Shown one piece after another: positions 24,901 through 39,794 of a DNA stretch of 64,000 nt. A model generated the notes under the pieces. That model did no database searches. It had not been told where the DNA came from and saw only the letters and a program-made list of their open reading frames with translations. Origin of the DNA: Monarcha castaneiventris obscurior (taxonomy: Eukaryota; Chordata; Aves; Passeriformes; Monarchidae); the NCBI GenBank assembly GCA_026261815.1, contig JAMPIT010000348.1, positions 372,001 to 436,000 of the forward strand, given 5' to 3'. Position numbers and translations under genes: made by a program. Every line of letters starts with the position of its first letter. The first letter of the stretch is position 1.

Positions 24901-25901
24901 TGGCATGGTTTGGCACATTTTGGCACATTCCGGGCTTCACTCCCTCTGTGAGCCTGCTTTGGGTTCTGCCTCATACACAGCTGGGCACTGGCAGCACTTC
25001 AGCAGCAGTAGAGCATCTTTGCAGCTCAGTGCTCAATCCCAGAGCCATGGCCTGCCTTTGCCGAGGGCTGAGCTCAGTAACTGACAGCTCACTATAGAGC
25101 TGTGGGCAGTAGCAGTGAGACCCTTTGCCTGATATGTCTGGCTGAACTGCATCTGCTATTTGAGTGCTCTTTTACCCTTCCTGGGCGTGGCTTTATCCTT
25201 TATGCTGTGTTTTACCTTGTGGAAAAAATTACTTTTTCACTCTTAAATATTTTTCTCGTTTTCCTCTAATGAAAAAGCATTCTCCCAAGAAGGGCATTGG
25301 GCAGTTCCTCAGGACTGGTCAGCCAAGGAGAGTCTTTAATGGAGCACTGCCTCCACGGGAGTGCATCTCTGCAAGGAATATCAAGCTCACTGCTTTCTTT
25401 TGCCTCTGTGAATCTGCTCTGAGAGTGCTGTGAGCAGCCACAGAGCTCTGACTATCCCTGCAAAGTGGTGTTTGGGTGCAGGAAGGCTCTGCTGGGAAGA
25501 AGAGCAGATCAGGAAGGCTCACTGGTGAGAGGGACTGATGGATTTCAGGAGAACACTGCTCTCTCTGCAGCCCCTGTACCTGCCTGGCAAAAGCTCTGCT
25601 TTCTCAGTGGTGCCTGTGGTGCATAACTGCTCACAGATTTGCAAAGGAACATTTAGCTAAATCAATTCCAACCACCTTGACACCTTCTCACCCCCAAGGC
25701 TCATGCTGGGGCTTGTGCTGCCTTATTCCTGTGACTGAAAGCACAGAGTTAATGCAGAAAGAGTTAATGGGACTTTGGAGCAGAAACCAAGTCTTTCTGT
25801 ACTGCAAACCCTGTAACAAAGACTACATCTGCTTCCGTTGCTTTCCCTGCTTGAGAGAGAAAGCATTTGTGAAACTTAAGATGGGTAGTGAAGAAATTGG
25901 A
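21931..25901. other. Intergenic sequence, no gene seen
   Basis: Several 60-110 codon ORFs occur on both strands without motifs, splice context or mutual consistency. No RNA gene is visible. Confidence 0.5.
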
Positions 25902-26062
25902 CTCCCCTCCCCTCCCCTCCCCTCCCCTCCCCTCCCCTCCCCTCCCCTCCCCTCCCCTCCCCTCCCCCTCCCCTCCCTCCCCTCCCTCCCCTCCCCTCCC
26001 CTCCCCTCCCTCCCCTCCCCTCCCTCCCCTCCCTCCCCTCCCCCCCTCCCCTCCCCTCCCCT
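25902..26062. repeat. Polypyrimidine (CCCCT)n microsatellite
   Basis: Roughly 160 bp of CCCCT and CCCTCC units, uninterrupted by purines. Its complement is G-rich enough to form G-quadruplexes. It is the reverse complement of the 3' part of the repeat at 39.4-39.64 kb, on the other side of the provirus. Confidence 0.95.
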
Positions 26063-27153
26063 CTTTCTCTCTTCTCGTTTCATTTTGTTTCATTTCTGAC
26101 TGACATAAGAGTTTGTTACAGTGGAGTCCAAGGGGATTTCACTGTAATGGCCATAGCAGTGGTGTGGAGGCCTGCAGAAAAGGCCACTCTTCCAGGGGAC
26201 ATCCCTCTGCTGGGGCAAATAGAAAGAAGATGAGACACTTTGAGGCAAAGCAGATTTCCACGTCCTCTCCCTGCAATGGTGGCACCACGCTGTGCCGGTG
26301 CTGCCCAAGCTCCAGGTGGCTCTGGGGACCTGCTGGGCAGCTCTGCCTCAGCAGCAGAGTTTCATTCACTTTCCTGGGTGCTCTGCCTGATCCCTTGCTC
26401 CAGAGATCACTGGGCAGATTGTGAACACTCTGCCTTTGCAAGGAGAAAACATTCTGCAAACTCCCTGGACTTGTTACGGGAACAGCATGCTAACGTTAAT
26501 TACGGCAAAGCCACTTGTGAAGCATTTAATGAAAACCTTCTCTGAATGTGCTGGCTTCCCAGCCAACACTGAATTACGCATCTTTGATGGTTATTAAGAA
26601 AAATCTGGTATTTTGATATTGTGTCTTCACTTGACATTAAAGGATGACACCCGAGCTCAAGTGTGTCATCAACTTCTTGTATAATTTAGTCAATAAATTT
26701 GACAACATTTTCATTTCCATTAACTGAATAATTGCTTTCATTTGCCAGTTTAATTTGCACAGAATAAGCCACTGCTAGGGAAAGGGAGGCTTGACAGTCA
26801 GGCTTTGAAAGCAGATCAGTACTTTAAATCATACTAATTTAAGAAAGATGTTGGATTTCTTTTGTAAGATGACTGCAGCTACAGCCTATGTGCTTCATTT
26901 GGTTTAACTGTGCTTCAGACAAGAGCACCTGATCTCCAGCTCCCTCATGTCCTAGGAAAAGAGTGGCATGTGTGACTTACTTCCTTAGAACATGTGACAT
27001 TAACGTCTGTATCTGTCAGCTTGATTGAAAGGAGAATATTTGATTGCAAGAACATGTGGATGGATTTTTTTAAATTGGGAAAGCTGACCTCAGTAATTGC
27101 TGCAGAACAAAGAACCTATGGAACAGGAGCTCACAGCTGCTGGCAGTGAGGAA
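26063..27153. other. Left flank of the provirus, no gene seen
   Basis: Unique-looking AT-rich sequence. The last bases before the 5' LTR read AGGAA, to be compared with AGGGA after the 3' LTR. Confidence 0.5.
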
Positions 27154-27538
27154 TGTGATAAGTTAAATTTACAATTTATTGTTTGTTAATCAAATCTTGC
27201 TAAATAATGATAAGTTAAAACCATAAGATACTATTTGTTACTTTTGCTGAAGCTAACAGAAATAAATATAGTTATCATGTGGATATTACTAAAGCCTAAA
27301 AGTTGTAGACATAAATCTAAAAACTGCTATTATTGCTTAAGCCTAAAAGTTGCAAAAGAGTTTTTATTTAAGCTTAAGAAACCACAAGAAGCCCACACCC
27401 AATTTAGAAAAGAAGACAAAGCAAATCACCATGAGAAAGCAAGAAAAGACCCTAATCACCATGAAACAGCAGAAAAGGACCCTTTTGCAACAGGCTGCGC
27501 AAACGCAGAGTACTTTATGGGATGCGGAAGAAGAAAAG

Positions 27539-27545
27539 TATATAA
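27539..27545 (+). promoter_or_regulatory. Proviral TATA box
   Basis: TATATAA lies about 97 bases before the poly(A) signal of the LTR, the expected U3 position. Transcription would start roughly 25-30 bases downstream. The 3' LTR carries the same box at 37118-37124. Confidence 0.75.
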
Positions 27546-27635
27546 CCAGAGACTTTTGGGGAGTGGGCTGCGCGCCATTGGTGGAGCGGAGACTCCCCGG
27601 CTGCCCAGCGCTGTTTTGCTTGTTGCCGCTTGCTT

Positions 27636-27641
27636 AATAAA
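27636..27641 (+). terminator. Poly(A) signal in the 5' LTR
   Basis: AATAAA lies about 55 bases before the LTR end, defining the R region together with the TATA box. The active copy would be the one in the 3' LTR at 37215-37220. Confidence 0.75.
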
Positions 27642-27700
27642 CTAATTTGTTTAATTGGCCAGAGCTCTGTCAATTTCTTGAGCAAAACCTATAACAAATT

Positions 27701-27718
27701 TGGTGCCGTGACTCGGAT
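27701..27718 (+). other. Primer binding site, tRNA-His type
   Basis: TGGTGCCGTGACTCGGAT starts four bases after the LTR. It is complementary to the 3' end of tRNA-His (GTG anticodon), the primer that names the ERV-H group. All 18 bases are intact. Confidence 0.88.
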
Positions 27719-28075
27719 ACAGGCAATCTGGTGTGAAACCCCACACAAGGGAGGCGCCCCGCTTTACAGCGGCCCTTGTTTGAATGTTTCCACCACCACC
27801 TGTACCCAACGAACCTAAATTCGGCAACAAGCAAAGGAAGCCGGCAACCCCATAATCTTTGTGCACGAAGCTCCGAACGAAGACTCAGGAGTGAGTAAGT
27901 ATAGGCCGTGATCCGTTCGGTTGGGGTTGGGTATCCCGGAATGCGCCTGTGTGAGACGTCCAAGTAAGGACGAAGTGAGTGCGGACCCTCTAGTAGTGCG
28001 GTTCCCACATCCCGTGAGGGACTGGGCCACGAACGAGGGGCTGAGATTGTATGTGTGTGAGAAGGCCTCTGGAAG
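27719..28075 (+). promoter_or_regulatory. Untranslated leader with the probable major splice donor
   Basis: The 357-bp leader lies between primer site and gag ATG. GTGAGTAAGT at 27891-27900 offers two overlapping donor consensus sites (GTGAGT, GTAAGT). This is the expected position for the donor used to make env and accessory mRNAs. The part after the donor would normally contain the packaging signal, since only unspliced RNA keeps it. Confidence 0.6.
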
Positions 28076-29542
28076 ATGGGACAGAGGAAAAGCAAGCCCT
28101 CTGGCCCCATGGGTGGGTCGGAGCTTAAGGTTAGGCTCCCCCAGATACCGTCGGATAGTCCATTAGGATTAATGTTAGAAAATTGGGATGTATACCCTTC
28201 TAGGCAGGGTAAAAATAAAGTCAAAATGATACACTATTGTATGGAGGTCTGGGGAGGAAAACAGATTAGGGGAGACCACCTGTTTTGGCCCGTTTTTGGA
28301 TCATTTGAAGACTGGATTTGTCAGGCTTTAAACATATATGTGAATTCTAAGGAGCCTTTTAATCTAGAAGAAAGTGAATATGCACACTTGTGGATAACAT
28401 CTGACACTAGAGCATTTTTGTTCCCCCTTAAAGAAAAAGCGGGGGGTAAAAAGAGGAGAAACCGTAAAGAGGAAGAGGTTCCTGTTTCGCCTCCTCCCTA
28501 TGTTCCACCACCGCCACCTCCTCAGCCTCTGCCCCCCCCATCGGCACCACCTCTTGAATCAGACTCCCCCCAAGGTTCCCCTGAAGAAACCAGGAGGGTG
28601 ACACAGAGCCAAGTTAAAAACAAAGGGAAAATTAAGAACTTATATCCCCTGAGGGAGGTTGCGATGGGGGGACCCCAACCTGGGATGGGATATGTGTCAG
28701 TCCCTCTAAGTTCGGGGGATGTTCGGGAATTCAAGAAGGAAATGGGGAATCTATTAGAGGACCCATTGGGGGTGGCTGAACGGGTGGATCAGTTCTTGGG
28801 ACCCAATGTATACACCTGGGAGGAAATACAGTCTATATTAAGTATGTTATTTACTGCTGAAGAGAGAGGCATGATCAGGAGGGCCAGAATGAGAATTTGG
28901 GATCAACAGCATCAGCAGGGTCCTGCAGCAGATATTAAGTGGCCTCTTCAGCGACCTAATTGGGATAACCAAAATCCCATTGACTGAGGCCATATGCAGG
29001 ATTTAAGAACCATCATTGTTCAGGGAATTAGAGACTCCGTTCCTAGGGGACAGAATATCAACATGGCATTTAGAGAACCCCAGAAGAAAGATGAGACTCC
29101 TACTGAGTGGTTGGAAAGATTAAGAAAAAACTTGCAGCTATACTCTGGGGTGGATCCGGCTACACCAGCAGGGCAGGCCTTATTAAAAACACAGTTTGTA
29201 GCACAGTCATGGGAAGACATCAGGAAGAAGCTGGAAAAGTTAGATGATTGGCATAATCGTGACTTAGATGAGTTGTTGAGAGAGGCACAGAAAGTGTATG
29301 TTCGAAGGGAAGAGGAGGTTAGGAAAGGGGCAATGTTGTTGGTGGCAGCAGTGAGAGGAGTGCAAAGGAGGGAATTTGGGTCACGACTGCAAGGTCCAGA
29401 ACCCAGAGGAATACGGAGGGAAAAAGAACAGGAGAACTCAGGACGCAGACAGATGGTTTGTTTTTATTGTCAGATGAGAGGACACTTAAAAAAGGAATGT
29501 AGGAAAAGGATGAGAGATGAACAGATGTTTAAAGAAGACTAG
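28076..29542 (+). pseudogene. gag: gag, one in-frame stop
   Basis: Gag forms the virion core. The frame starts ATG-GGA, giving a Gly-2 myristoylation site for membrane targeting. After the matrix region comes a PPPY late-budding motif (28490-28501) in a long proline-rich stretch. The capsid region starts near residue 190, and a major homology region lies just past the break. One CCHC zinc knuckle (C-x2-C-x4-H-x4-C) is at 29459-29500 in nucleocapsid. Total length is 488 codons, usual for a gamma-type Gag. A TGA at 28985-28987 splits the frame inside capsid; the frame resumes without a shift. The native end is TAG at 29540-29542, with pol continuing in the same frame. The capsid style and single knuckle point to gammaretrovirus-like ancestry. 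Confidence 0.92.
29540..29542 (+). other. gag-pol UAG, likely read-through site
   Basis: The TAG is followed by GGG and the pol frame continues in the same phase. Gammaretroviruses express Gag-Pol by suppressing a UAG stop followed by G, helped by a downstream RNA structure. The downstream sequence is G-rich at first, but I cannot fold it here. Confidence 0.65.
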
Positions 29543-32500
29543 GGGTGTCAGGGGCTCTATTTGCTGGGGACCAGGAAGATAACAGAGCCCTTGATAAAAA
29601 TTAAAGTGAGTCCCTGGCAACAAGGAATTGAGTTCCTAGTGGACTCAGGAGCTGAAAGATCTACGGTTCAAGATATACCCCGAGGATGCACAGTATCCTC
29701 AGAAAAAGTACAAGTTATAGGAGCAAAAGGAGAACCATTTGGGGTTCCAGTCATAAAAAATGTATTTTTTGAGACTTCTTCTAAAATGGGGATAGGATCT
29801 TTGTTGTTAATGCCTGAGGCAGAATATAATCTATTAGGAAGGGACTTAATGATTGAACTAGGAATTGGCTTAAAAATAGAAGATGACACCTTAAAAATTA
29901 AATTGTGCCCACTACAAGTATCTGATGAAGAAAAAATAAACCCAGAAGTGTGGTATACTCTGGAGACAGTGGGCAGACTGAATATTAAACCATTTTCAGT
30001 CACAATAAAGAACCCAGAAATACCTGTAAAAATAAAACAATATCCTTTGCCGAGAGAAGGCAAACTAGGTGTGAAACCTGAAATCCAAAGACTGCTTGAA
30101 AGAGGGTTACTAGAACCTTGTATGTCACCATTTAATACCCCGATCTTACCTGTTAAGAAACCAGATGGAACATACTGATTAGTGCATGATTTGCGAGAAA
30201 TAAATAAGAGAACAGTGGCTAGATTCCCCGTGGTGACAAATCCTTACACTTTATTAAGCCAACTAGGCCCAGATGATCAATGGTATAGTGTGATAGATTT
30301 GAAAGATGCCTTCTGGGCCTGTCCTCTAAAGGAGGAATGCAGAGATTATTTTGCCTTTGAATGGGAAGACCCTGATACACACAGAAAGCAGCAACTGAGA
30401 TGGACAGTGCTGCCCCAGGGCTTTACTGAATCACCTAATTTGTTTGGGCAAGCCTTAGAGCAGATCCTGAAAGAATATGAACTAGGCGATGGCATCACTT
30501 TGGTTCAGTATGTGGATGATTTGCTTTTGGCTGGAAAAAGTGAAGAAGCAGTAAGACAAGAAAGCATTAAGTTATTAAACTTTTTAAGCTTGCAAGGGTT
30601 AAAGGTGTCAAAGTCAAAATTACAGTTTGTTGAACAGGAAGTGAAATATCTAGGGCACAGGCTGAGTAGGGGAACTAAGAAGTTGGACCCCGAAAGAGTG
30701 AATGGTATATTGTCTCTAACTGCTCCAAGAACTAAGAGACAAGTTAGGCAGCTTTTAGGTCTTTTTGGGTATTGTAGGCACTGGATTGAAGATTATAGCA
30801 AAAAGGTGAAATTTTTATATGCTAAATTAACAAAAGATGGGTTGTTAAAGTGGTCAGAAGATGATGAAAAACAATTAGAATTGCTAAAAACAGACCTGGT
30901 AAATGCTCCCGTGTTGAGCTTACCAGATATAAAGAAACCGTTTTATTTATTTGTCAACATTGATGAAGGAACTGCATTTGGGGTATTAGCACAAGAATGG
31001 GCAGGGAAAAAGAAACCCATAGGGTATCTTTCTAAACTTTTGGATCCCGTGAGTAGTGGATGGCCTACGTGTTTACAGGCGGTGGTGGCTGCGGCTCTCC
31101 TAATAGAGGAAGCCCGTAAGATTACCTTTGGGGGAGAATTGAAGGTATTATCCCCCCATAATATCAGAGGAATTTTACAACAAAAAGCTGATAAATGGAT
31201 AACTGATGCCCGACTTTTGAAATATGAAAGCATTTTAATCTCTTCTCCCAAATTAGAACTTGAAATAACCAAATTACAAAATCCGGCACAGTTCTTATAC
31301 GGGGAGCCTAGTGAGAAGCTAACTCATGATTGTTTGCGGAACATAGAGGAACAAACTAAAATCAGGCCAGATTTAGAAGAAGAGGAACTGGGAGAAGGGG
31401 AAAAGTTGTTTGTAGACGGATCCTCCCGAGTGGTAGAAGGAAAATGAAAATCAGGATATGCCATAATTGATGGAAAACAACTCAGTGTAATAGAATCTGG
31501 ACCCCTAACTCCAAGCTGGTCTGCTCAAGCGTGCGAATTATATGCAGTGTTGAAGGCTTTACAATTATTAGAAGGTAAAATTGGGACTATATACACTGAT
31601 TCGAAATATGCTTTTGGAGTAGTACATACATTTGGGAAAATATGGGAAGAAAGAGGGTTAATAAACTCACAAGGAAAAGGGCTCATATATGAGGCCTTAA
31701 TCACTCAGACTCTCCGTGCCCTAAGAAAACCACAGAAAATAGCTGTAGTACATATAAAAGGACATCAGAGGGGGTTGTCATTCACAATAAGAGGCAATAA
31801 CTTAGCAGATAGCGAAGCAAAAAGAGCTGCACTGCTAACAGTATCTGCAGTTGAACATGATCCAGATCAACAACCTAAGGATAAGAAACTTCAACCAGTA
31901 GTGTTTACCACACAAGAGCGAGAAAAACTGGCTCAGATGGGGGTGGCTGAAAACCAAGGAGAGTGGAAGCTACCAGACGGCAGAAGTGTATTGCCTAAGA
32001 GTTTAGCCTGGAAGATTATGGAAAAATATCACAAGATTACACATTGGGGGGTTCAAGCTTTAATAGATCAGTTTGCTCTTAAATATATGTGTATTGGAAT
32101 TTGCAATATTGCAAAACGAGTAGTAGGGGATTGCTTAACTTGCCAATGTGTAAATAAGCAGCAGCTCCGGAAACAAATACCTGGAGGACGGGAATTAGCA
32201 GCTCGTCCTTTTGCAAGAATACAGGTAGATTTTACTGAGCTACCCAAAACAGGGAGATATAGGTACCTTTTAGTGATTGTGGATCATTTAACACACTACG
32301 TGGAAGCATTTCCTACTGCAAGGGCTACTGCTCAAAGTGTTGTAAAAATTTTGTTAGAAAATACTATCCCAAGGTATGGAAATATAGAAGTTATTGATTC
32401 TGATAGGGGTCCTCATTTTGTTTCCAAGGCAGTCAAAGAAGCATTGGCCCCTATGGGAATAAAGTGGGAATACCATACACCATGGCATCTGCAAAGCTCT

Positions 32501-33037
32501 GGGCGAGTAGAAAGAATGAATGGAGAAATTAAGAAACAATTGACAAAAATCATGTTAGAAATAAAAACCTCTTGGGTAAAAAGTTTACCCTTGGCATTGT
32601 TAAATGTAAGGACTCAACCAAGGACTGATGTAGGGATATCACCCTTTGAGATGCTATATGGGATGCCATATGATATGGAATTCCCAGTTGAACATCCAAA
32701 AATAGCAGATGATAAGCTGAAACCATACATTATACATTTAATGAACAAAAGAGAAGAATTATGTAAAAAAGGCTTAATAACTCAAAGACCACCCTTAGAG
32801 ATGTCTATACATTCTATTAAACCTGGGGACAGAATGTTAATTAGAACATGTAAAGAAGTATCCCTAACTCCCCGATGGGAGGGACCATTTCTTGTTTTAC
32901 TTACTACAGATACCGCAATTCGGACGGCTGAACGTGGATGGACACATGCCAGCCGGGTTAAAGGACCTATTCAGGATTCGCAATGGAGAGTAACCAGCAG
33001 CCCTGGTGATCTCAAGCTTACCTTAAAAAGAAAATAG
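29543..33037 (+). pseudogene. pol: pol (protease, reverse transcriptase, RNase H, integrase), two in-frame stops
   Basis: The frame is continuous with gag beyond the UAG. Protease has the aspartyl motif DSGAE at 29642 and LLGRD downstream. Reverse transcriptase has VIDLKDAF, LPQGF and the catalytic YVDD (30509-30520). RNase H begins with the VDGSS aspartate at 31415. Integrase has an HHCC zinc region near 32030-32150 and a D-x57-D-x35-E triad (32228, 32402, 32510), plus a gamma-type C-terminal domain with WEGPF. TGA codons at 30176-30178 (start of RT) and 31445-31447 (inside RNase H) break it, without frameshift. Length is normal for the family. All catalytic residues seen are intact, so inactivation seems to rest on the stops. 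Confidence 0.95.
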
Positions 33038-33178: not shown

Positions 33179-33832
33179 ATGCTCGACCCTGAAGCACAAG
33201 AACGAGAAGATTACTGTGCTAGGCGAACGCTCCTCCCTCTAGTGAATGAATTATCTCAATTAACGGGAACAAAATATCATTTACGATATGTGGATCAAAC
33301 TACATTTATTTGGCTTTTCGGAGAAGCAAATTTAGCAATCCAACCTAATAAGTCCTTCATATCAGAGAAGTCTCGCTTGTATCCCTGTAAACAATGTTTT
33401 AACTGTTTTCCTTGGTTTAAAATTAGGTGTGGCAGGTGTTTTAGAAAAAAGTGGGTAAATTACAGATATCTTTGTCTTCATATTACTTGCAATAGCTGCT
33501 TTGGTGAGCTTAGGCAACAAGAGAACGAATTTGTTGCTTTAAGAAAATTTGCTGGTATGCCATGGCTGCCTGCCCACGATTTAATAAATTTAATTGAAAA
33601 TGAAGGACAACGGCAGCTAGCTCAGTTTGCTTACCTTTTACAAGTTCGAATAGATAAAGCAAAAGCTTGGAGGAATACTTTTATTTTACAAGTGCAGTGT
33701 AAGAAAGGAATATGTATTCCCGAACAGCATGAAGTAGAAGAACGATTTTGGAATCAGGAATGCATTCGCTGGTCTCAACATCGGGCTGTTATTCGTTCAC
33801 TTCGTACCAGTAGGAAGGCTATACAAAATTGA
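33179..33832 (+). CDS. Accessory ORF 1 between pol and env, cysteine-rich, unrecognised
   Basis: The 217-codon frame is intact, starts at ATG 33179 and is in the same phase as pol, 141 bp after its stop. A plausible splice acceptor (GTTCTGTCATAG ending 33118) precedes it. Residues 70-107 hold eight cysteines (C-x2-C-x2-C-x7-C-x2-C-x11-C-x4-C-x2-C) with RKKW after the fifth, likely binding two zinc ions. A second conserved stretch at 174-191 fits C-x-K-x4-P-E-x2-E-x2-E-R-x-W. Both are shared with ORF 2, implying tandem duplication. No signal peptide or membrane segment is seen. It is basic near the cysteines, so nucleic-acid binding or a role like transactivator or restriction-factor antagonist is possible, but function is unknown. 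No counterpart exists in simple gammaretroviruses. Confidence 0.75.
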   Translation: MLDPEAQEREDYCARRTLLPLVNELSQLTGTKYHLRYVDQTTFIWLFGEANLAIQPNKSFISEKSRLYPCKQCFNCFPWFKIRCGRCFRKKWVNYRYLCLHITCNSCFGELRQQENEFVALRKFAGMPWLPAHDLINLIENEGQRQLAQFAYLLQVRIDKAKAWRNTFILQVQCKKGICIPEQHEVEERFWNQECIRWSQHRAVIRSLRTSRKAIQN

Positions 33833-33902
33833 TGTGACTCAATTATTCCTATTAGATTTTACAGGTGACCAGCCCAACCTGAGAACTCCAAACTTATCTT
33901 GA

Positions 33903-34466
33903 AAAGAAAGCAGCACTCTTAACACTGTGGCTGAAGGAGAAGCTATAGCATCTCCCTCTCCTAAATGGTTCGGCCTTGACCCATGGGAATTTGTTAATCT
34001 TGTAAGACCTCGGGTAAATTTAAGAGGGGAACTTATCCGCACTGAAGGACTTTACAGAACATCAGCTGGCAATTACGTGGCTCTGGACTGGGAACAACCT
34101 ACTGTAGAAAATAACCAGGTTGAGAGGGTAATTGGAATACCATGCATCTGTGGCTGTGGGAACTTGCGGGTATTAGGATCTGATCAAGGGTGGCATGCAG
34201 CTTGGGTATTAACTGAATGTGAAAGGTGTAAGAAGAAATGGTATTGTTCCTCTATATGTCAAAACAACTTATGCCCTAAATGCCGTCAGCAATATTCAAG
34301 TCGGGCAACTGGTGAGCTAAGAATTTTGAAGTTGTTTTGTGGGAAAAAGTATTTGCTTCCTGAAGAGTGGGAAATAAAAGAAAGGGATTGGAAACATACT
34401 ATTAAAATTTGTAAAATAAGATTTGGGTGGAAACAGAGAGGACAGAAAACAAGAAATAAATATTAA
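33903..34466 (+). CDS. Accessory ORF 2 between pol and env, cysteine-rich paralogue of ORF 1
   Basis: The open frame runs from 33903 (after a stop) to TAA at 34464. It contains no ATG; a GTG at 33927 begins the 179-codon part I describe. Either it is a downstream exon of a spliced message, or its initiator was lost, or it starts at a non-AUG codon. Nine cysteines lie at residues 73-119, including C-x2-C-KKKW and C-x4-C-x2-C, matching ORF 1. Residues 138-155 align without gaps to ORF 1 174-191, with eight identities in eighteen positions. ORF 1 has about 48 extra residues between these parts. It shares its phase with env. The C-terminus is basic. Function unknown; no stops interrupt it. Confidence 0.68.
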   Translation, partial: KESSTLNTVAEGEAIASPSPKWFGLDPWEFVNLVRPRVNLRGELIRTEGLYRTSAGNYVALDWEQPTVENNQVERVIGIPCICGCGNLRVLGSDQGWHAAWVLTECERCKKKWYCSSICQNNLCPKCRQQYSSRATGELRILKLFCGKKYLLPEEWEIKERDWKHTIKICKIRFGWKQRGQKTRNKY

Positions 34467-34652: not shown

Positions 34653-34775
34653 ATGAATAACCTCACTGCCCCAAGCAACCGGGTAGGTGATGGAGGCAGA
34701 GGCGTACAACAGTGGGGATGGAGTGGGACTCAAGGTGGAAAGCGCCAGAGAAAAAGAAAACGCTCAGTGAACCAG
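34653..34775 (+). other. Candidate regulatory exon: basic env leader ending at a strong splice donor
   Basis: The first 41 env codons end exactly at CAG/GTATGT (donor after 34775), in phase 0. They contain a Lys/Arg cluster, KRQRKRKR (residues 30-37), typical of nuclear-localisation and RNA-binding motifs. In MMTV (Rem) and HERV-K HML-2 (Rec), the RNA-export protein is made from a basic env leader, with HML-2 Rec spliced to a 3' exon. That resemblance is positional and compositional, not sequence homology. The downstream exon is not identified; acceptor-like TTTTACAG occurs near 36093-36100. Confidence 0.45.
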
Positions 34776-36713
34776 GTATGTGGTAAAGGCCTCCCAAAAT
34801 GCAGGAGGATGAACTGGGACTTTAACATGGTAAGAAGAAATTACCCACCAACTTTCTGGACAATTTATTGGATACTAGGGTGGATCATACTATCAGCATG
34901 GGGATATGCTCACCAACCCTATAAATGGACGTTAGGCAGATGGGAAGATACGACAGTGGTTAGCCAAGAAATTACCCCAGGAAGCCCATCGTTTAAGGTC
35001 ACAATAGGATCTTTGGGACCTACATGGCCACGAGAGCGAGTTGTTGGGTATTATATGTGCCCTAGATCTAATCCCGGGAAAAGTTACTGTAACCATCCTA
35101 AACATTACTATTGTGCTTATTGGGGTTGTGAAACCATCGCATCAGAATGGCAACCCGCCATCCGTGACTCATTCATTAAAACACAATGGGGGCCGGTGGG
35201 CTGCCGATCTCAGTCATGTGGACCTGGCTGTCTGACCACTATACGAGGAATCTCAGATGTCTCAGGCCCTGATCGCAAACGAATATGTACATACATTCTG
35301 ATAAATGTTACTCGACCAGAAGACCCAGGATGGTTAACAGGAAGGACCTGGGGAGTCCGGCTCTATGTGGCAGGGGCAGATCCGGGAAGTCTAATATATA
35401 TCAAAAAGGAACTGGTTCCGAATGACCCTGAGCCAGTGGGCCCTAATAAGGCACTGGCAGACAAGCCTCCTGTGGTACTCCCTTTTATAGATGAAAATAT
35501 AACTAGTAAAACAGTCATTAACAGTACCACAGCAACCCCTTCGTCTATGAACACTCAGGCCCATGGGGACAATTCTCTTTGGAAATTGGCACAAGCAAGT
35601 TATCAAATACTAAATGCTACCAATTCGAATTTAACTAAACATTGTTGGTTATGTTATAGTATCCAACCACCTTTCTATGAGGCAATAGGGGTTACTGCCA
35701 AACCCACAAGGATCAATGGATCAAACCCTTCACAATGTTTATGGAAAAAAGGTGGGGAGAATCTTAGTCAAGGTATTACTTTAGCACAAGTAACCGGAAA
35801 AGGAAGGTGTATTGGGAAGGTGCCCTGAGAAAAAGAACATTTATGTAAGGTCATGGCTTCTTTAAAAGAAAAGCCACCAGCTGATTGGTTAATACCGGCA
35901 AAGAATACCAAATGGGTTTGTGCCTCTATCAGAGTAACACCTTGTTTGTCTTTAAAATTATTTAACAAAAGCCACGATTATTGCATTCAAGTATTAGTAG
36001 TCCCTAGAGTCATGTACCATCCTGAGGAGTTCATGTATGATTATCAGACAACACCAGAGCATCATTTACAGAGAAGGGAACCTTTTACAGCTTTAACCGT
36101 GGCAGCCTTAGTTGCTATGGGGGCTGCAGGAGTAGGTACTGGAGCAGCTTCACTGATACAACAAAATCAGCAGTTTAGTTCTTTAAGGGCAGCAGTAGAT
36201 GACGACTTAGAGAGGATAGAGAAATCAGTAAGTGCCTTGGAAACTTCACTTCGGTCACTATCAGAACTAGTTTTACAAAATAGAAGGGGATTGGACTTGT
36301 TATACTTAAAGGAGGGTGGATTATGTGCTGCGTTACGGGAGGAGTGTTGTATATATGCAGATCATACTGGGATTGTGAGGGATACAATGACTAAACTGCG
36401 TGAAGGACTGGAGAAGCGGAAAAAGGAACGAGAAGCCCAGCAAAGTTGGTATGAATCATGGTTTACACACTCCCCGTGGCTAACTACATTGTTATCTACC
36501 ATAGCGGGACCTGTTATATTATTGATTTTAGGACTAACTTTTGGCCCTTGCATATTTAATAAAGTTATTGCCATTGTTAAGAGTAGGCTGGAAGCAGCAC
36601 ATTTAATGTTGGTAAGAACAAAATATGAACAGGAAGATAAAGAGTCAGTTATTGAGGAAGCCCTGATTTTAAGTAAACAAGAACTTGAAAGATTTGATAA
36701 ACAAAATAGTTAG
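34653..36713 (+). pseudogene. env: env, one in-frame stop
   Basis: The envelope glycoprotein mediates entry. The leader is long: about 65 residues precede a hydrophobic signal segment at roughly 67-82. The surface subunit has several N-glycosylation sites and the CWLC motif (35643-35654) that gamma-type Envs use for a disulfide link to the transmembrane subunit. A QRR-type basic site near 36070 marks the likely subunit border, followed by an Ala/Gly-rich fusion peptide. The transmembrane subunit has heptad repeats, an immunosuppressive-domain-like region ending in CX6CC (near 36326-36352), and one membrane anchor at about 36480-36545 with a cytoplasmic tail. A TGA at 35826-35828 separates the end of the surface subunit; the frame resumes in phase. 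Two internal ATGs (34809, 34827) offer a shorter signal peptide. Confidence 0.92.
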
Positions 36714-36732: not shown

Positions 36733-37275
36733 TGTGATAAGTTAAATTTACAATTTATTGTTTGTTAATCAAATCTTGCTAAATAATGATAAGTTAAAAC
36801 CATAAGATACTATTTGTTACTTTTGCTGAAGCTAACAGAAATAAATATAGTTATCATGTGGATATTACTAAAGCCTAAAAGTTGTAGACATAAATCTAAA
36901 AACTGCTATTATTGCTTAAGCCTAAAAGTTGCAAAAGAGTTTTTATTTAAGCTTAAGAAACCACAAGAAGCCCACACCCAATTTAGAAAAGAAGACAAAG
37001 CAAATCACCATGAGAAAGCAAGAAAAGACCCTAATCACCATGAAACAGCAGAAAAGGACCCTTTTGCAACAGGCTGCGCAGACGCAGAGTACTTTATGGG
37101 ATGTGGAAGAAGAAAAGTATATAACCAGAGACTTTTGGGGAGTGGGCTGCGCGCCGTTGGTGGAGCGGAGACTCCCTGGCCGCCCAGCGCTGTTTTGCTT
37201 GTTGCCGCTTGCTTAATAAACTAATTTGTTTAATTGGCCGGAGCTCTGTCAATTTATTGAGCAAAACCTGTACCA
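36733..37275 (+). repeat. 3' LTR
   Basis: It is 543 bp long at an offset of 9579 from the 5' LTR, with the same TATA box and AATAAA. Nine substitutions (seven transitions) separate the two LTRs, all after base 348. It ends GTACCA where the 5' LTR ends ATAACA, and is followed by AGGGA. Confidence 0.95.
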
Positions 37276-39071
37276 AGGGAGATCCAGGCCCCACCCAGGG
37301 CTTGTGGAGAAAATATGTGTGCCTTCAATTAAAGCTTCTTTTCCTTTTCCTTGTTCTCTTTCCTCATTCCAGAGTGTTCTCCTTAAACTGCCTTAAACCA
37401 AGACACCATCTGGTCATCACCTTTTGGAAAGTGGGGACAGGCGCATGGACTGTGTGCCTCTTCTGTTTGACAAATGCTTTAAGTCCTTTCACAATGCAGA
37501 GAATCTGAGAGTGCCACAAGTGTTTCAACGCTCTCTGCTTTGCTGGTTTTAATGGAGTTTTTGAGTGTTATTTCGAGTTCATTTACCCTCCAGGTGTAAA
37601 GGACAAAAGTGGCAAAAGAGGAGCAACAGAATAGAGAAAGAGAGGAGAGCCACAGAAAGGCCAGGGTGTGCTCAGGCAGTCTGTGCTACCTCAGCAGGAT
37701 GAGGAACAGGAAAAAATAAGCAGATTCATTACATTCAATGGCATGAAAATACTCAACTGCATTTCGAATGAGCCTATGCACATGGTGACTTTTTATAAAA
37801 TTGCTGGGTATTGACATGTTGGTTGGGCAAGAGAGATAAGCCAAAACCACGTTACTGCAAATTAACCAGTGCAGCATAATAAAAGTCAGTGCCTTATCAG
37901 TATACACTATTTGTGCTACACAGCTCAAAAAGTGAGCTGGTGGGGCTGATTCTGAATGCAGAAAAACTTCTGAAGTCAACAAAGTTTCAGTCCTGAAAAG
38001 GTGCAGGGTGCTGAGGAGCCAAAGACGTTGTGATTAGTATTTTGCTGAAGATGATGAATTGCTGGAAGAGCAACCTGTTCTAAATGAAAATGAAATATGG
38101 GGATATTTCAGTTGTCCTTTTCTCCCTGTAGCCATAAAGATCAAAATTTCAGAGCTGTTGGTGGAGATTCCCTTTGTACTTTTTGGGGGTGTTCCCCTGA
38201 GGGCTACAGCATAGTTTCTGTAGTTGTTAAACATTTGCTGCATATCGTGTCCACCACAAACAGCTGGCTTTGCAACAGTAGTAAATCCATCTGCATACCT
38301 CACAGGAAGCCCATTCTGTATAACAGACTTTTCCTCCTGTATGAGAATTAAAATCTCCATCTAATTTCAATAATTATAGAAACTGATACTAATAATTAAA
38401 CAACCTGATGCTTAATTATCTGCTAAGCAACGAATTGCAACTAGTCCATTACCCTCAACACCAAGCAATGTAACTGAGCAGATGGCTTAGCAGTAGTTTT
38501 TCCCTGTGCACCTGACTGCACAACAGCTTTTTTTCAATGAAAGGAAATAAAACTTAATTTTTGGAAATTCAACTCCTCAGAGACACATAGTGTTTACATA
38601 TTTTATAGAAGTCTCTGCTCCCTACACAGCTTGGGAAAATTTACTTTACTTTTCCAAAACCTTTTCATAGTTCTTAGTTTTCCTTTTGGTGCTTGTTTCG
38701 TTTTGTTTTCTTTAAAAATAAGAGACTTTATGTCAGAAAGAATGGCATGATTAATGTATTTATTTTAAAATTAGAAAAGGAGTTCCTCTATTTGACCACC
38801 TCCTCTTTTTTTTTAAAGTCTGCATTTTATCGATAAATGGTACTAATTTGATTCTCAAAATTTAAAATATTGAATTTTTAGTAAGATGAGTGTCTTCATT
38901 TATCTTGCTGTCTTATCTTTGGTCTTTTGGTGTAAATTCTGGCAGTGAAGACTCCAGGACAGACATGTCATGGATTAGCTGGAGTCAGACTGCTGTAAGG
39001 ACAGAGTTACATAATTCTGACCAGTAAATGTTGAAAATCAGCAAAAAGAACCATTATTTAGGAATCAAAGT
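37276..39071. other. Right flank of the provirus, no gene seen
   Basis: No recognisable coding region or element. Small motif-free ORFs only. Confidence 0.5.
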
Positions 39072-39125
39072 AAAAAAGAGAAAGAGAAGGAGAAAGCGAA
39101 AGAGGAAGAAAGCGAAAGCGAAACC

Positions 39126-39157
<32 letters not shown>

Positions 39158-39218
39158 AAGAGAAAGAGAAAGAGAAAGAGAAAGAGAAAGAGAAAGAGAA
39201 AGAGAAAGAGAAAGAGAA

Positions 39219-39251
<33 letters not shown>

Positions 39252-39643
39252 AGAGAAAGAGAAAGAGAAAGAGAAAGAGAAAGAGAAAGAGAAAGAGAAA
39301 GAGAAGAGAGAAAGAGAAAGAAAGAAAGAAAGAGAAGGAAGAGAGAGAAAGAGAAAGGAGGGAAGGGGAAAGGGGAAGGGGAAGGGGAAGGGGAAGGGGA
39401 GAGGGGAAGGGAAGGGGAAAGGGGAGGGAAGGGAAGGGGAAGGGGAAGGGGAAGGGGAAGGGGAAGGAGGGAAGGGGAAGGGGGGAGGGGAAGGGAAGGG
39501 AAGGGGAGGGAGGGGGAGGGGAGGGGAGGGGGGAGGGGAGGGAGGGGAGGGAGGGGAGGGGAGGGGAGGGGAGGTGGGGGAGGGAGGGGAGGGGGAGGGG
39601 AGGGGAGGGGAGGGGAGGGGAGGGGAGGGGAGGGGAGGGGAGG
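39072..39643. repeat. Polypurine tract shifting from (AAAGAG)n to (AGGGG)n
   Basis: About 570 bp of purines on the plus strand. The left third is GAAAGA units, the middle AAGGGG units, and the right third GGGGA/GGAGGG units, so G content rises steadily from left to right. The right part is the reverse complement of the repeat at 25902-26062. The 207-codon charged open frame here is a repeat artefact. Confidence 0.95.
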
Positions 39644-39794
39644 AATACTAATACATTCCTGTTATCAAATAAAACTGGTTGAAGTGAGCTTCATATTTGT
39701 TCCAATAATCAATGCAAAATGGATAATTAACATTCTTCCTTAGTCCACTAAGGACATTTTTTTGAGCCCACAAAGTGTGATCCTTTCAGTTGTT

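What the first reader, a model, noticed from the sequence alone, without database searches (positions are those of the whole stretch)
33179..34466. Two tandem paralogous cysteine-rich genes between pol and env of a gamma-like provirus
Both frames are free of stops while gag, pol and env are interrupted. They share C-x2-C followed by KKW, the spacing C-x4-C-x2-C, and an ungapped 18-position motif (C-x-K-x4-P-E-x2-E-x2-E-R-x-W, eight identities). Gammaretroviruses are normally simple and have nothing here. This would be a new accessory gene family arisen by duplication, possibly zinc-binding. That they are paralogues is inference from the visible pattern.
Basis: partly seen in the sequence, partly recalled or inferred. 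Interest (0 to 1): 0.92.

Follow-up and report, generated by a model that had tools for sequence, protein, structure and literature searches.

The report
Accessory genes swapped between bird retroviruses
Two unbroken cysteine-rich genes sit between pol and env of this provirus, and relatives of both occur in other proviruses of the same genome, including a different retrovirus class, so an accessory gene family that likely binds zinc has probably been passed between retroviruses by recombination.

Summary
Between pol and env of a gamma-like provirus (LTRs 98.2% identical) lie two open frames, ORF1 (217 aa) and ORF2 (187 aa), while gag, pol and env carry in-frame stops. Neither reaches a named family's cut-off. 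In the same genome, ORF1 has 25 matches and ORF2 61 matching stretches, the window included. The 5 distant ORF1 relatives whose flanks I read lie in class II proviruses, before an env of avian gp85 type. Of 30 ORF2-like loci read, 3 are window-type, 17 carry tandem genes X1-X2 or remains of them (gag follows in at least 12), 5 a single gene before gag, 1 is class I pol-X-env, 4 are class II pol-X-env. ORF1 and ORF2 share an ordered Cys/Trp/Pro signature and weak profile similarity: likely remote relatives, but not a duplication in place. ORF1 is nearer to a class II gene, ORF2 to X1; a pol-end relic lies between them, and one related provirus runs pol straight into ORF2. dN/dS is mostly below 1. 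Likely function (inferred): a zinc-binding regulator of viral RNA or transcription; a Vif-like adaptor is the main rival. Fold predictions failed (pLDDT 34-37).

The parts
27154..27696 (+). 5' LTR
   Evidence: 548-bp aligned repeat 98.2% identical to the 3' copy, 10 mismatches; edges read from TG...CA
27424..27483 (+). two 30-nt direct repeats in the LTR (also 37003-37062)
27701..27718 (+). primer binding site, exact match to a tRNA-His complement (that sequence recalled)
28079..29542 (+). gag (MGQ start; one in-frame stop at 28985-28987); ends in a stop followed by pol in the same frame
   Evidence: Gag_p30 above cut-off in the second piece, just below it in the first; CCHC knuckle below cut-off
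29543..33037 (+). pro-pol, with two in-frame stops
   Evidence: RVP, RVT_1, RNase H, rve, MLVIN_C above cut-off
33179..33832 (+). ORF1, cysteine-rich accessory gene, 217 aa
33386..33499 (+). ORF1 predicted zinc region: C70, C73, C76, C84, C87, C104, C107
33698..33751 (+). ORF1 C-terminal motif C174...P181...W191
33865..33920 (+). relic of a second pol 3' end, interpreted as the scar of the ORF1 insertion
   Evidence: alignment to pol end of L029 (C447) score 34, 0 of 2000 shuffles; to this provirus's own pol end score 19, 0 of 2000, best shuffle 18 (junctions)
33903..34466 (+). ORF2, cysteine-rich accessory gene, 187-codon open frame without methionine; possible start at the GTG 33927-33929
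34143..34283 (+). ORF2 predicted zinc region: C81, C85, H98, C106, C109, C124, C127
34338..34391 (+). ORF2 C-terminal motif C146...P153...W163
34653..36713 (+). env, gamma-type, one in-frame stop at 35826-35828
   Evidence: TLV_coat in both pieces
36733..37275 (+). 3' LTR

Best explanation
ORF1 and ORF2 are unbroken genes with relatives in several other proviruses of the same genome, of class I and class II, and they are likely two remote branches of one accessory family whose protein is predicted to bind zinc and would regulate viral RNA or transcription. Shown by calls: open frames; homologues in at least five provirus layouts (pol-ORF1-ORF2-env, pol-X-env of class I and of class II, X1-X2 before gag, single X before gag); conserved cysteines; dN/dS mostly below 1; a pol-end relic between ORF1 and ORF2 and a related provirus without ORF1. 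Inferred: the window's pair was assembled when recombination (template switching between co-packaged genomes) put a 'pol end + ORF1' segment in front of an older 'pol end + ORF2'. Predicted, untested: a zinc-ribbon-like core (C-x2,3-C ... W-x4-C-x2-C ... C-x2-C), with a basic tail in ORF2, X1 and ORF1, binds nucleic acid or a host factor in the nucleus, as Tat-, Tax- or Tas-like regulators do (recalled). Also inferred: ORF2, X1 and X2 are translated from a conserved GTG in good context or from a spliced messenger.
For: ORF1 genome search: 25 matches with the window, 3 at 94-100% and 22 at 23-30%; 20 of 25 without stops. ORF1 against the class II gene of L004: BLASTP 7e-14, with the seven zinc-region cysteines invariant in 5 of 5 aligned. 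Flanks read at 5 distant loci (L004-L008): class II pol upstream in 5 of 5 (integrase present in 4; in L008 the pol frame lacks it) and class II env downstream in 5 of 5; family tests were made on L004 alone (MMTV integrase best in the PDB; Avian_gp85). ORF2: 61 stretches; protein relatives P0001 (Zonotrichia albicollis) to P0007. The class II gene of L047 finds the window's ORF2 at 7e-6. Layouts of 30 loci. Paralogy: after ORF1's own frames, the ORF1-family profile ranks 31 ORF2-type rows (25 distinct sequences) above the first other frame (ORF2 E 2.7e-4, first other 0.1), hhalign P 7.9e-4; spacings W-x4-C-x2-C, C-x6-P and P-x9-W are equal in ORF1 and ORF2. X1 and X2: score 153, 0 of 1000 shuffles. 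dN/dS: ORF1 0.26-0.33, class II gene 0.27-0.51 in 14 of 15 pairs. Scar. Synonymous divergence window to C675: RT 0.53, ORF2 0.33, SU 0.12, a mosaic. GTG at the start position in 7 of 7 X1 and 10 of 10 X2 printed.
Against: The ORF2-family profile does not find ORF1 (E 6.7) and hhalign probability is only 24.8% (12.9%; 1.2% for ORF1 alone). ORF1 had no hit among 39 candidates of the protein database. Folds failed. ORF2 is unbroken in 1 of 5 close copies; window against C673 shows 8 replacement and 0 silent changes in ORF2; one class II gene pair gives 0.75, L047-L054 gives 1.17 and two X2 pairs exceed 1.5; no X2 pair and only 3 of 15 X1 pairs reach z -2. The class II genes compared overlap pol for their first 25 or so of 206 codons. 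Class II ORF1-like genes and X2 lack a strongly basic tail. AUGs upstream of X1 argue against simple scanning to its GTG. Some loci may be assembly duplicates (L047 and L055 have identical genes), so loci are not independent insertions. No transcript or protein evidence exists here; the regulatory role rests on inference.
Confidence: 0.58

Rival explanations
1. Vif-like adaptor: the proteins are zinc-folded adaptors that would disable a host restriction factor rather than regulate expression.
For: Position between pol and env as in lentiviral vif (recalled); conserved zinc-type Cys/Trp core; sharing across retrovirus classes suits a common host target; divergent N-terminal parts.
Against: In 17 of 30 loci read the genes are the X1-X2 pair or its remains, with gag downstream in at least 12, not the vif position; no match above a named family's cut-off; no host target tested.
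Confidence: 0.25
2. In-place tandem duplication: ORF1 and ORF2 are copies of one gene duplicated inside this virus.
For: Head-to-tail order, shared C-terminal motif, and a tandem pair X1-X2 that is clearly related in another lineage.
Against: ORF1 is closer to class II genes than to ORF2, ORF2 closer to X1; the pol-end relic precedes ORF2 and one related provirus has pol directly followed by ORF2.
Confidence: 0.08
3. Captured host gene: the family derives from a bird gene taken up by retroviruses and has no retroviral role of its own.
For: Host gene capture between pol and env is in print for crocodile ERVs (KIT-ligand; PMC4299795, passages read).
Against: No match above cut-off in Pfam, NCBIfam or convincing PDB hit; spread over several provirus lineages with dN/dS mostly below 1. 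Host bird proteins were searched only through.
Confidence: 0.07
4. Chance open frames in a decaying provirus.
For: The provirus is young (LTRs 98.2%), so short frames may simply not have been hit yet.
Against: Homologues with open frames and conserved cysteines in distant proviruses.
Confidence: 0.02

Closest known systems
Simple gammaretroviruses (MLV, REV type)
   Same: Gag_p30, pol in the gag frame after a stop, TLV_coat env
   Different: A 2025 review lists delta-, epsilon-, lenti- and spumaviruses as complex and names MLV as simple, without accessory genes (PMC12789967, passages read); here one or two extra genes
Complex fish retroviruses (SnRV; WDSV and WEHV named in the same passage)
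   Same: Extra small genes besides gag-pol-env
   Different: SnRV extra genes are ORF1 52, ORF2 94, ORF3 76 residues and 3'ORF 205 codons (PMC12193657, passages read); their proteins were not compared here
CrocERV29 with KIT-ligand between pol and env
   Same: An extra gene in the same interval, with a codon Z-test for purifying selection (PMC4299795, passages read)
   Different: A recognisable captured host gene; here no named match
TgERV-F and other env recombinants of birds
   Same: Exchange between retrovirus classes in songbirds (review PMC10536682, passages read)
   Different: There env moved; here an accessory gene
IS91 transposase zinc domain (PF14319) and MYND finger (PF01753)
   Same: Local C-x2-C resemblance in ORF2 (E 0.0014) and in L043 X (E 0.007)
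   Different: Both below the curated cut-off; no transposase context

Membership tests
Gammaretrovirus-like (class I) provirus | Gag_p30, RT and integrase of MLV type, TLV_coat env, pol in the gag frame after a stop | tested here: met
Gammaretrovirus-like (class I) provirus | Simple genome, no gene besides gag-pro-pol-env | tested here: not met
   ORF1 and ORF2
New accessory family (ORF1/ORF2/X) | Ordered Cys/Trp core and C-terminal C...P...W motif | tested here: met
   14 of 876 frames, all at family genes; the signature was written after seeing the families, and 9 of 10 ORF1-like and 8 of 16 ORF2-like sequences meet both halves (several are fragments)
New accessory family (ORF1/ORF2/X) | ORF1 and ORF2 share one ancestor | tested here: inconclusive
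   E 2.7e-4 one way, 6.7 the other; hhalign P 7.9e-4, probability 24.8%
New accessory family (ORF1/ORF2/X) | Purifying selection | tested here: met
   dN/dS below 1 with z about -2 to -4 for ORF1 and most class II gene pairs; weaker for X1, not significant for X2
Zinc-binding protein | Bound zinc | not testable with these tools
   Only conserved ligand-type residues shown
Zn_Tnp_IS91 (PF14319) | Score above curated cut-off | tested here: not met
   19 against 26.3 bits
MYND finger (PF01753) | Score above curated cut-off | tested here: not met
   16.8 against 22.7 bits, in L043 X only
Lentiviral Vif / Tat, spumaviral Tas, deltaretroviral Tax | Sequence homology | tested here: inconclusive
   No Pfam match above cut-off; whether each of these families has a Pfam model was not checked
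Lentiviral Vif / Tat, spumaviral Tas, deltaretroviral Tax | Function | not testable with these tools
   -

The most novel reading that the evidence does not exclude
Bird retroviruses carry a mobile accessory-gene family that has crossed between class I (gamma-like) and class II (beta/alpha-like) viruses, sits either between pol and env or before gag, is often doubled, and is translated from a conserved GUG: complex gammaretroviruses with a shared, exchangeable zinc-binding regulator.
Probability: 0.5. Interest if true: 0.9.

Novelty: new variant of a known kind. Interest (0 to 1): 0.8.

Why it matters
Gammaretroviruses are the textbook simple retroviruses. An accessory family shared by gamma-like and class II proviruses would mean that birds hosted complex gammaretroviruses and that accessory genes, not only env, were exchanged across retrovirus classes. 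Because the genes are open in some copies, the function can be tested one gene at a time.

Tried and rejected
AlphaFold models of ORF2 (with P0001) and ORF1 alone had mean pLDDT 36.7 and 34.0, so no fold search was run. Viral contigs gave no relative by three queries. PDB sequence searches gave nothing convincing. NCBIfam gave nothing above cut-off. In L008, L059 and L071 pol and the ORF1-like gene form one long frame; whether these are deletions or copies of spliced RNA was not settled, since only the joint of L008 was printed. Leaky scanning through X1-X2 to gag fits fewer AUGs than expected (6-8 against about 18-25 in the seven loci counted over the whole region) but not the AUGs upstream of X1, and the window's ORF2 stretch is less depleted (9 against 13-14). 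Splice scoring with recalled tables gives acceptors at 32910, 33119 and 33865 and donors at 27963 and 27974 among the best; nothing decides between them. An exact target-site duplication was not found (five bases, four equal; read). The meaning of source tag lgn for P0002-P0007 is not stated by the tool.

Not in print: the searches were made; they cover only open-licence PMC papers, and the titles and abstract openings listed named no such family. The TgERV-F paper and the 2012 avian ERV survey are not held.

Copies lacking both genes were not counted: a search with the env TM piece did not complete.

Full report
1. The provirus. LTRs at 27154-27696 and 36733-37275 (98.2% over 548 aligned bases, 10 mismatches), a tRNA-His primer site four bases after the 5' LTR (complement recalled), gag starting MGQ, pro-pol in the same frame after a stop, and gamma-type env. 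gag carries one in-frame stop, pro-pol two besides the junction, env one. With a recalled neutral rate of about 2e-9 per site and year the LTR divergence would be some 4-5 million years; this is a rough inference.

2. The two genes. ORF1 (33179-33832) has an ATG. ORF2 (open 33903-34466) has none in frame. Pfam gives nothing above cut-off. BLASTP between them gives E 0.001 over the C-terminal motif, and 6 of 2000 shuffles reach the Smith-Waterman score. So the resemblance is more than chance, but by pairwise comparison only modestly.

3. Relatives of ORF2 elsewhere. A database of 5.8 billion proteins gave one relative, P0001, an uncharacterized protein of Zonotrichia albicollis, 51% identical over 89% of ORF2, and with both as query P0002-P0007 too. 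ORF1 had none at E 1 or better.

4. The same genome, ORF1. 25 matches with the window: three at 94-100%, all open, and 22 at 23-30%, 17 of them without stops. I read the flanks of five distant ones (L004-L008): in 5 of 5 a class II pol frame lies upstream (integrase in 4; in L008 the frame joins pol to the gene without integrase) and a class II env downstream. Tested on L004: the integrase has MMTV integrase as best PDB match and env matches Avian_gp85. BLASTP ORF1 against the L004 gene: 7e-14. Of 14 further distant loci fetched, 12 showed the gene frame by a pattern scan; their flanks were not classified.

5. The same genome, ORF2. 61 matching stretches, several per locus. I read 30 loci. Three are window-type: L057 with ORF1; L029 without ORF1, pol running straight into ORF2; L030 with integrase deleted up to ORF2. 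Seventeen belong to a gamma-like lineage with two tandem genes X1 and X2 or remains of them (RT about 53-56% to the window's at L031, L034 and L037, 41% at L035); 12 show X1, X2 and gag in that order (L031-L034, L037-L040, L042, L050, L051, L058). Four have a single X before gag (L041, L043, L044, L056) and one (L053) a more diverged X before a gag-like frame. L046 has class I integrase, X, then a TM-like frame that stays below the Pfam cut-off. L047, L052, L054 and L055 are class II pol-X-env. L047 and L055 carry identical genes, and other pairs of contigs gave equal matches, so some loci may be assembly duplicates. Searching back with the class II gene of L047 finds the window's ORF2 at 7e-6 among 30 matches.

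6. Are ORF1 and ORF2 paralogues? Likely, not proven. A profile of 10 ORF1-like sequences ranks, after ORF1's own frames, 31 rows of ORF2 type (25 distinct sequences) ahead of the first other frame (ORF2 E 2.7e-4, first other frame 0.1), but these rows are one family and not independent. The reverse profile finds three class II genes at 0.0019-0.013 and ORF1 only at 6.7. hhalign P is 7.9e-4 with probability 24.8%. The ordered pattern is the same in both: two cysteines, then W-x4-C-x2-C, then C-x2-C, then in ORF1 and ORF2 themselves C-x6-P-x9-W; ORF1 has about 48 more residues before the last part. The combined signature, written after seeing the families, is met by 14 of 876 frames, all at family genes. 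X1 and X2 are plainly related (score 153, 0 of 1000 shuffles).

7. How the pair came about. Directly before and into ORF2 the window holds a stretch that aligns with the pol end of L029 (score 34, best of 2000 shuffles 18) and less strongly with the provirus's own pol end (score 19, best shuffle 18). L029 has pol end and ORF2 side by side. The simplest reading is that a segment 'pol end + ORF1' was put in front of 'pol end + ORF2' by recombination; loss of ORF1 in L029 is the alternative and is not excluded. Window and C675 differ at silent sites by 0.53 in RT, 0.33 in ORF2 and 0.12 in SU, which also speaks for a mosaic.

8. Selection. Pairwise NG86 dN/dS: ORF1 0.26, 0.28 and 0.33 (3 pairs, z -1.9 to -2.3); ORF2 0.38-0.53 in 5 of 6 pairs, the sixth having no silent change and 8 replacements; class II gene 0.27-0.51 in 14 of 15 pairs and 0.75 in one, z down to -4.3; single-X lineage 0.24-0.51 (6 pairs); X1 0.32-0.63 (15 pairs, 3 beyond z -2); X2 0.26-1.58 (15 pairs, none beyond z -2); L047-L054 1.17. 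For comparison RT 0.08 (1 pair) and SU 0.37-1.55 (6 pairs). Pairs share ancestry and are not independent; the class II gene's first 25 or so codons overlap pol.

9. Expression. No in-frame AUG occurs in ORF2, in X1 of L031-L035 (L034 and L035 shortened), in X2 of L031, L033, L034, L037, L040, L045, L048 and L049, or in the L047 gene; the broken X1 copies L038, L040 and L042 have one or two. At the start of the conserved part stands GTG, with A at -3 and G at +4, in 7 of 7 X1 and 10 of 10 X2 printed and in the window's ORF2; single-X loci have AUG at about that place in 3 of 3 printed. This suggests non-AUG initiation; a spliced start cannot be excluded.

10. Function. The core looks like a zinc ribbon: C70, C73, C76, C84, C104 and C107 in 10 of 10 and C87 in 9 of 10 ORF1-like; C81 and C124 in 16 of 16, C85, H98, C106, C109 and C127 in 15 of 16 ORF2-like. 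Tails of ORF2, X1, P0001, the L047 gene and ORF1 are basic, those of X2 and the class II ORF1-like genes little or not. I commit to a zinc-dependent regulator of viral RNA or transcription at about 0.35, against a Vif-like adaptor at about 0.25; the family and its spread across classes I hold at about 0.85.

11. Known or new. A 2025 review names MLV as simple and does not list gammaretroviruses among the complex genera (PMC12789967, passages). Accessory genes in fish retroviruses (PMC12193657, passages), a captured gene between pol and env in crocodile ERVs (PMC4299795, passages) and class-crossing env in songbirds (PMC10536682, passages) are precedents for parts of this. OVEX1 of chicken is described as having no obvious accessory frames (PMC2717909, abstract and passages). 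The paper searches named in Tried and rejected listed no paper on this family.

Noticed in passing
window 27424-27483 and 37003-37062: Two 30-nt direct repeats inside each LTR, possibly enhancer repeats.
   Followed up: no
window 34653-34900: Env begins with a leader that holds a strongly basic stretch (GKRQRKRKR) well before the hydrophobic signal, somewhat like the Rem-type leader of MMTV (recalled).
   Followed up: no
L008, L059, L071: Class II copies in which pol and the ORF1-like gene are joined into one long open frame at nearly the same place in the gene.
   Followed up: partly
L045 and L048: X1-X2-gag remains next to nearly equal flanking frames, apparently two copies of one genomic stretch.
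   Followed up: no
window 39021-39743 and 25892-26103: Long purine-rich simple repeats that give long spurious frames on both strands.
   Followed up: no
L031 2508-3580 and six related loci: AUG is about 2.5 to 4 times rarer than expected across X1-X2 in the seven loci counted whole.
   Followed up: partly
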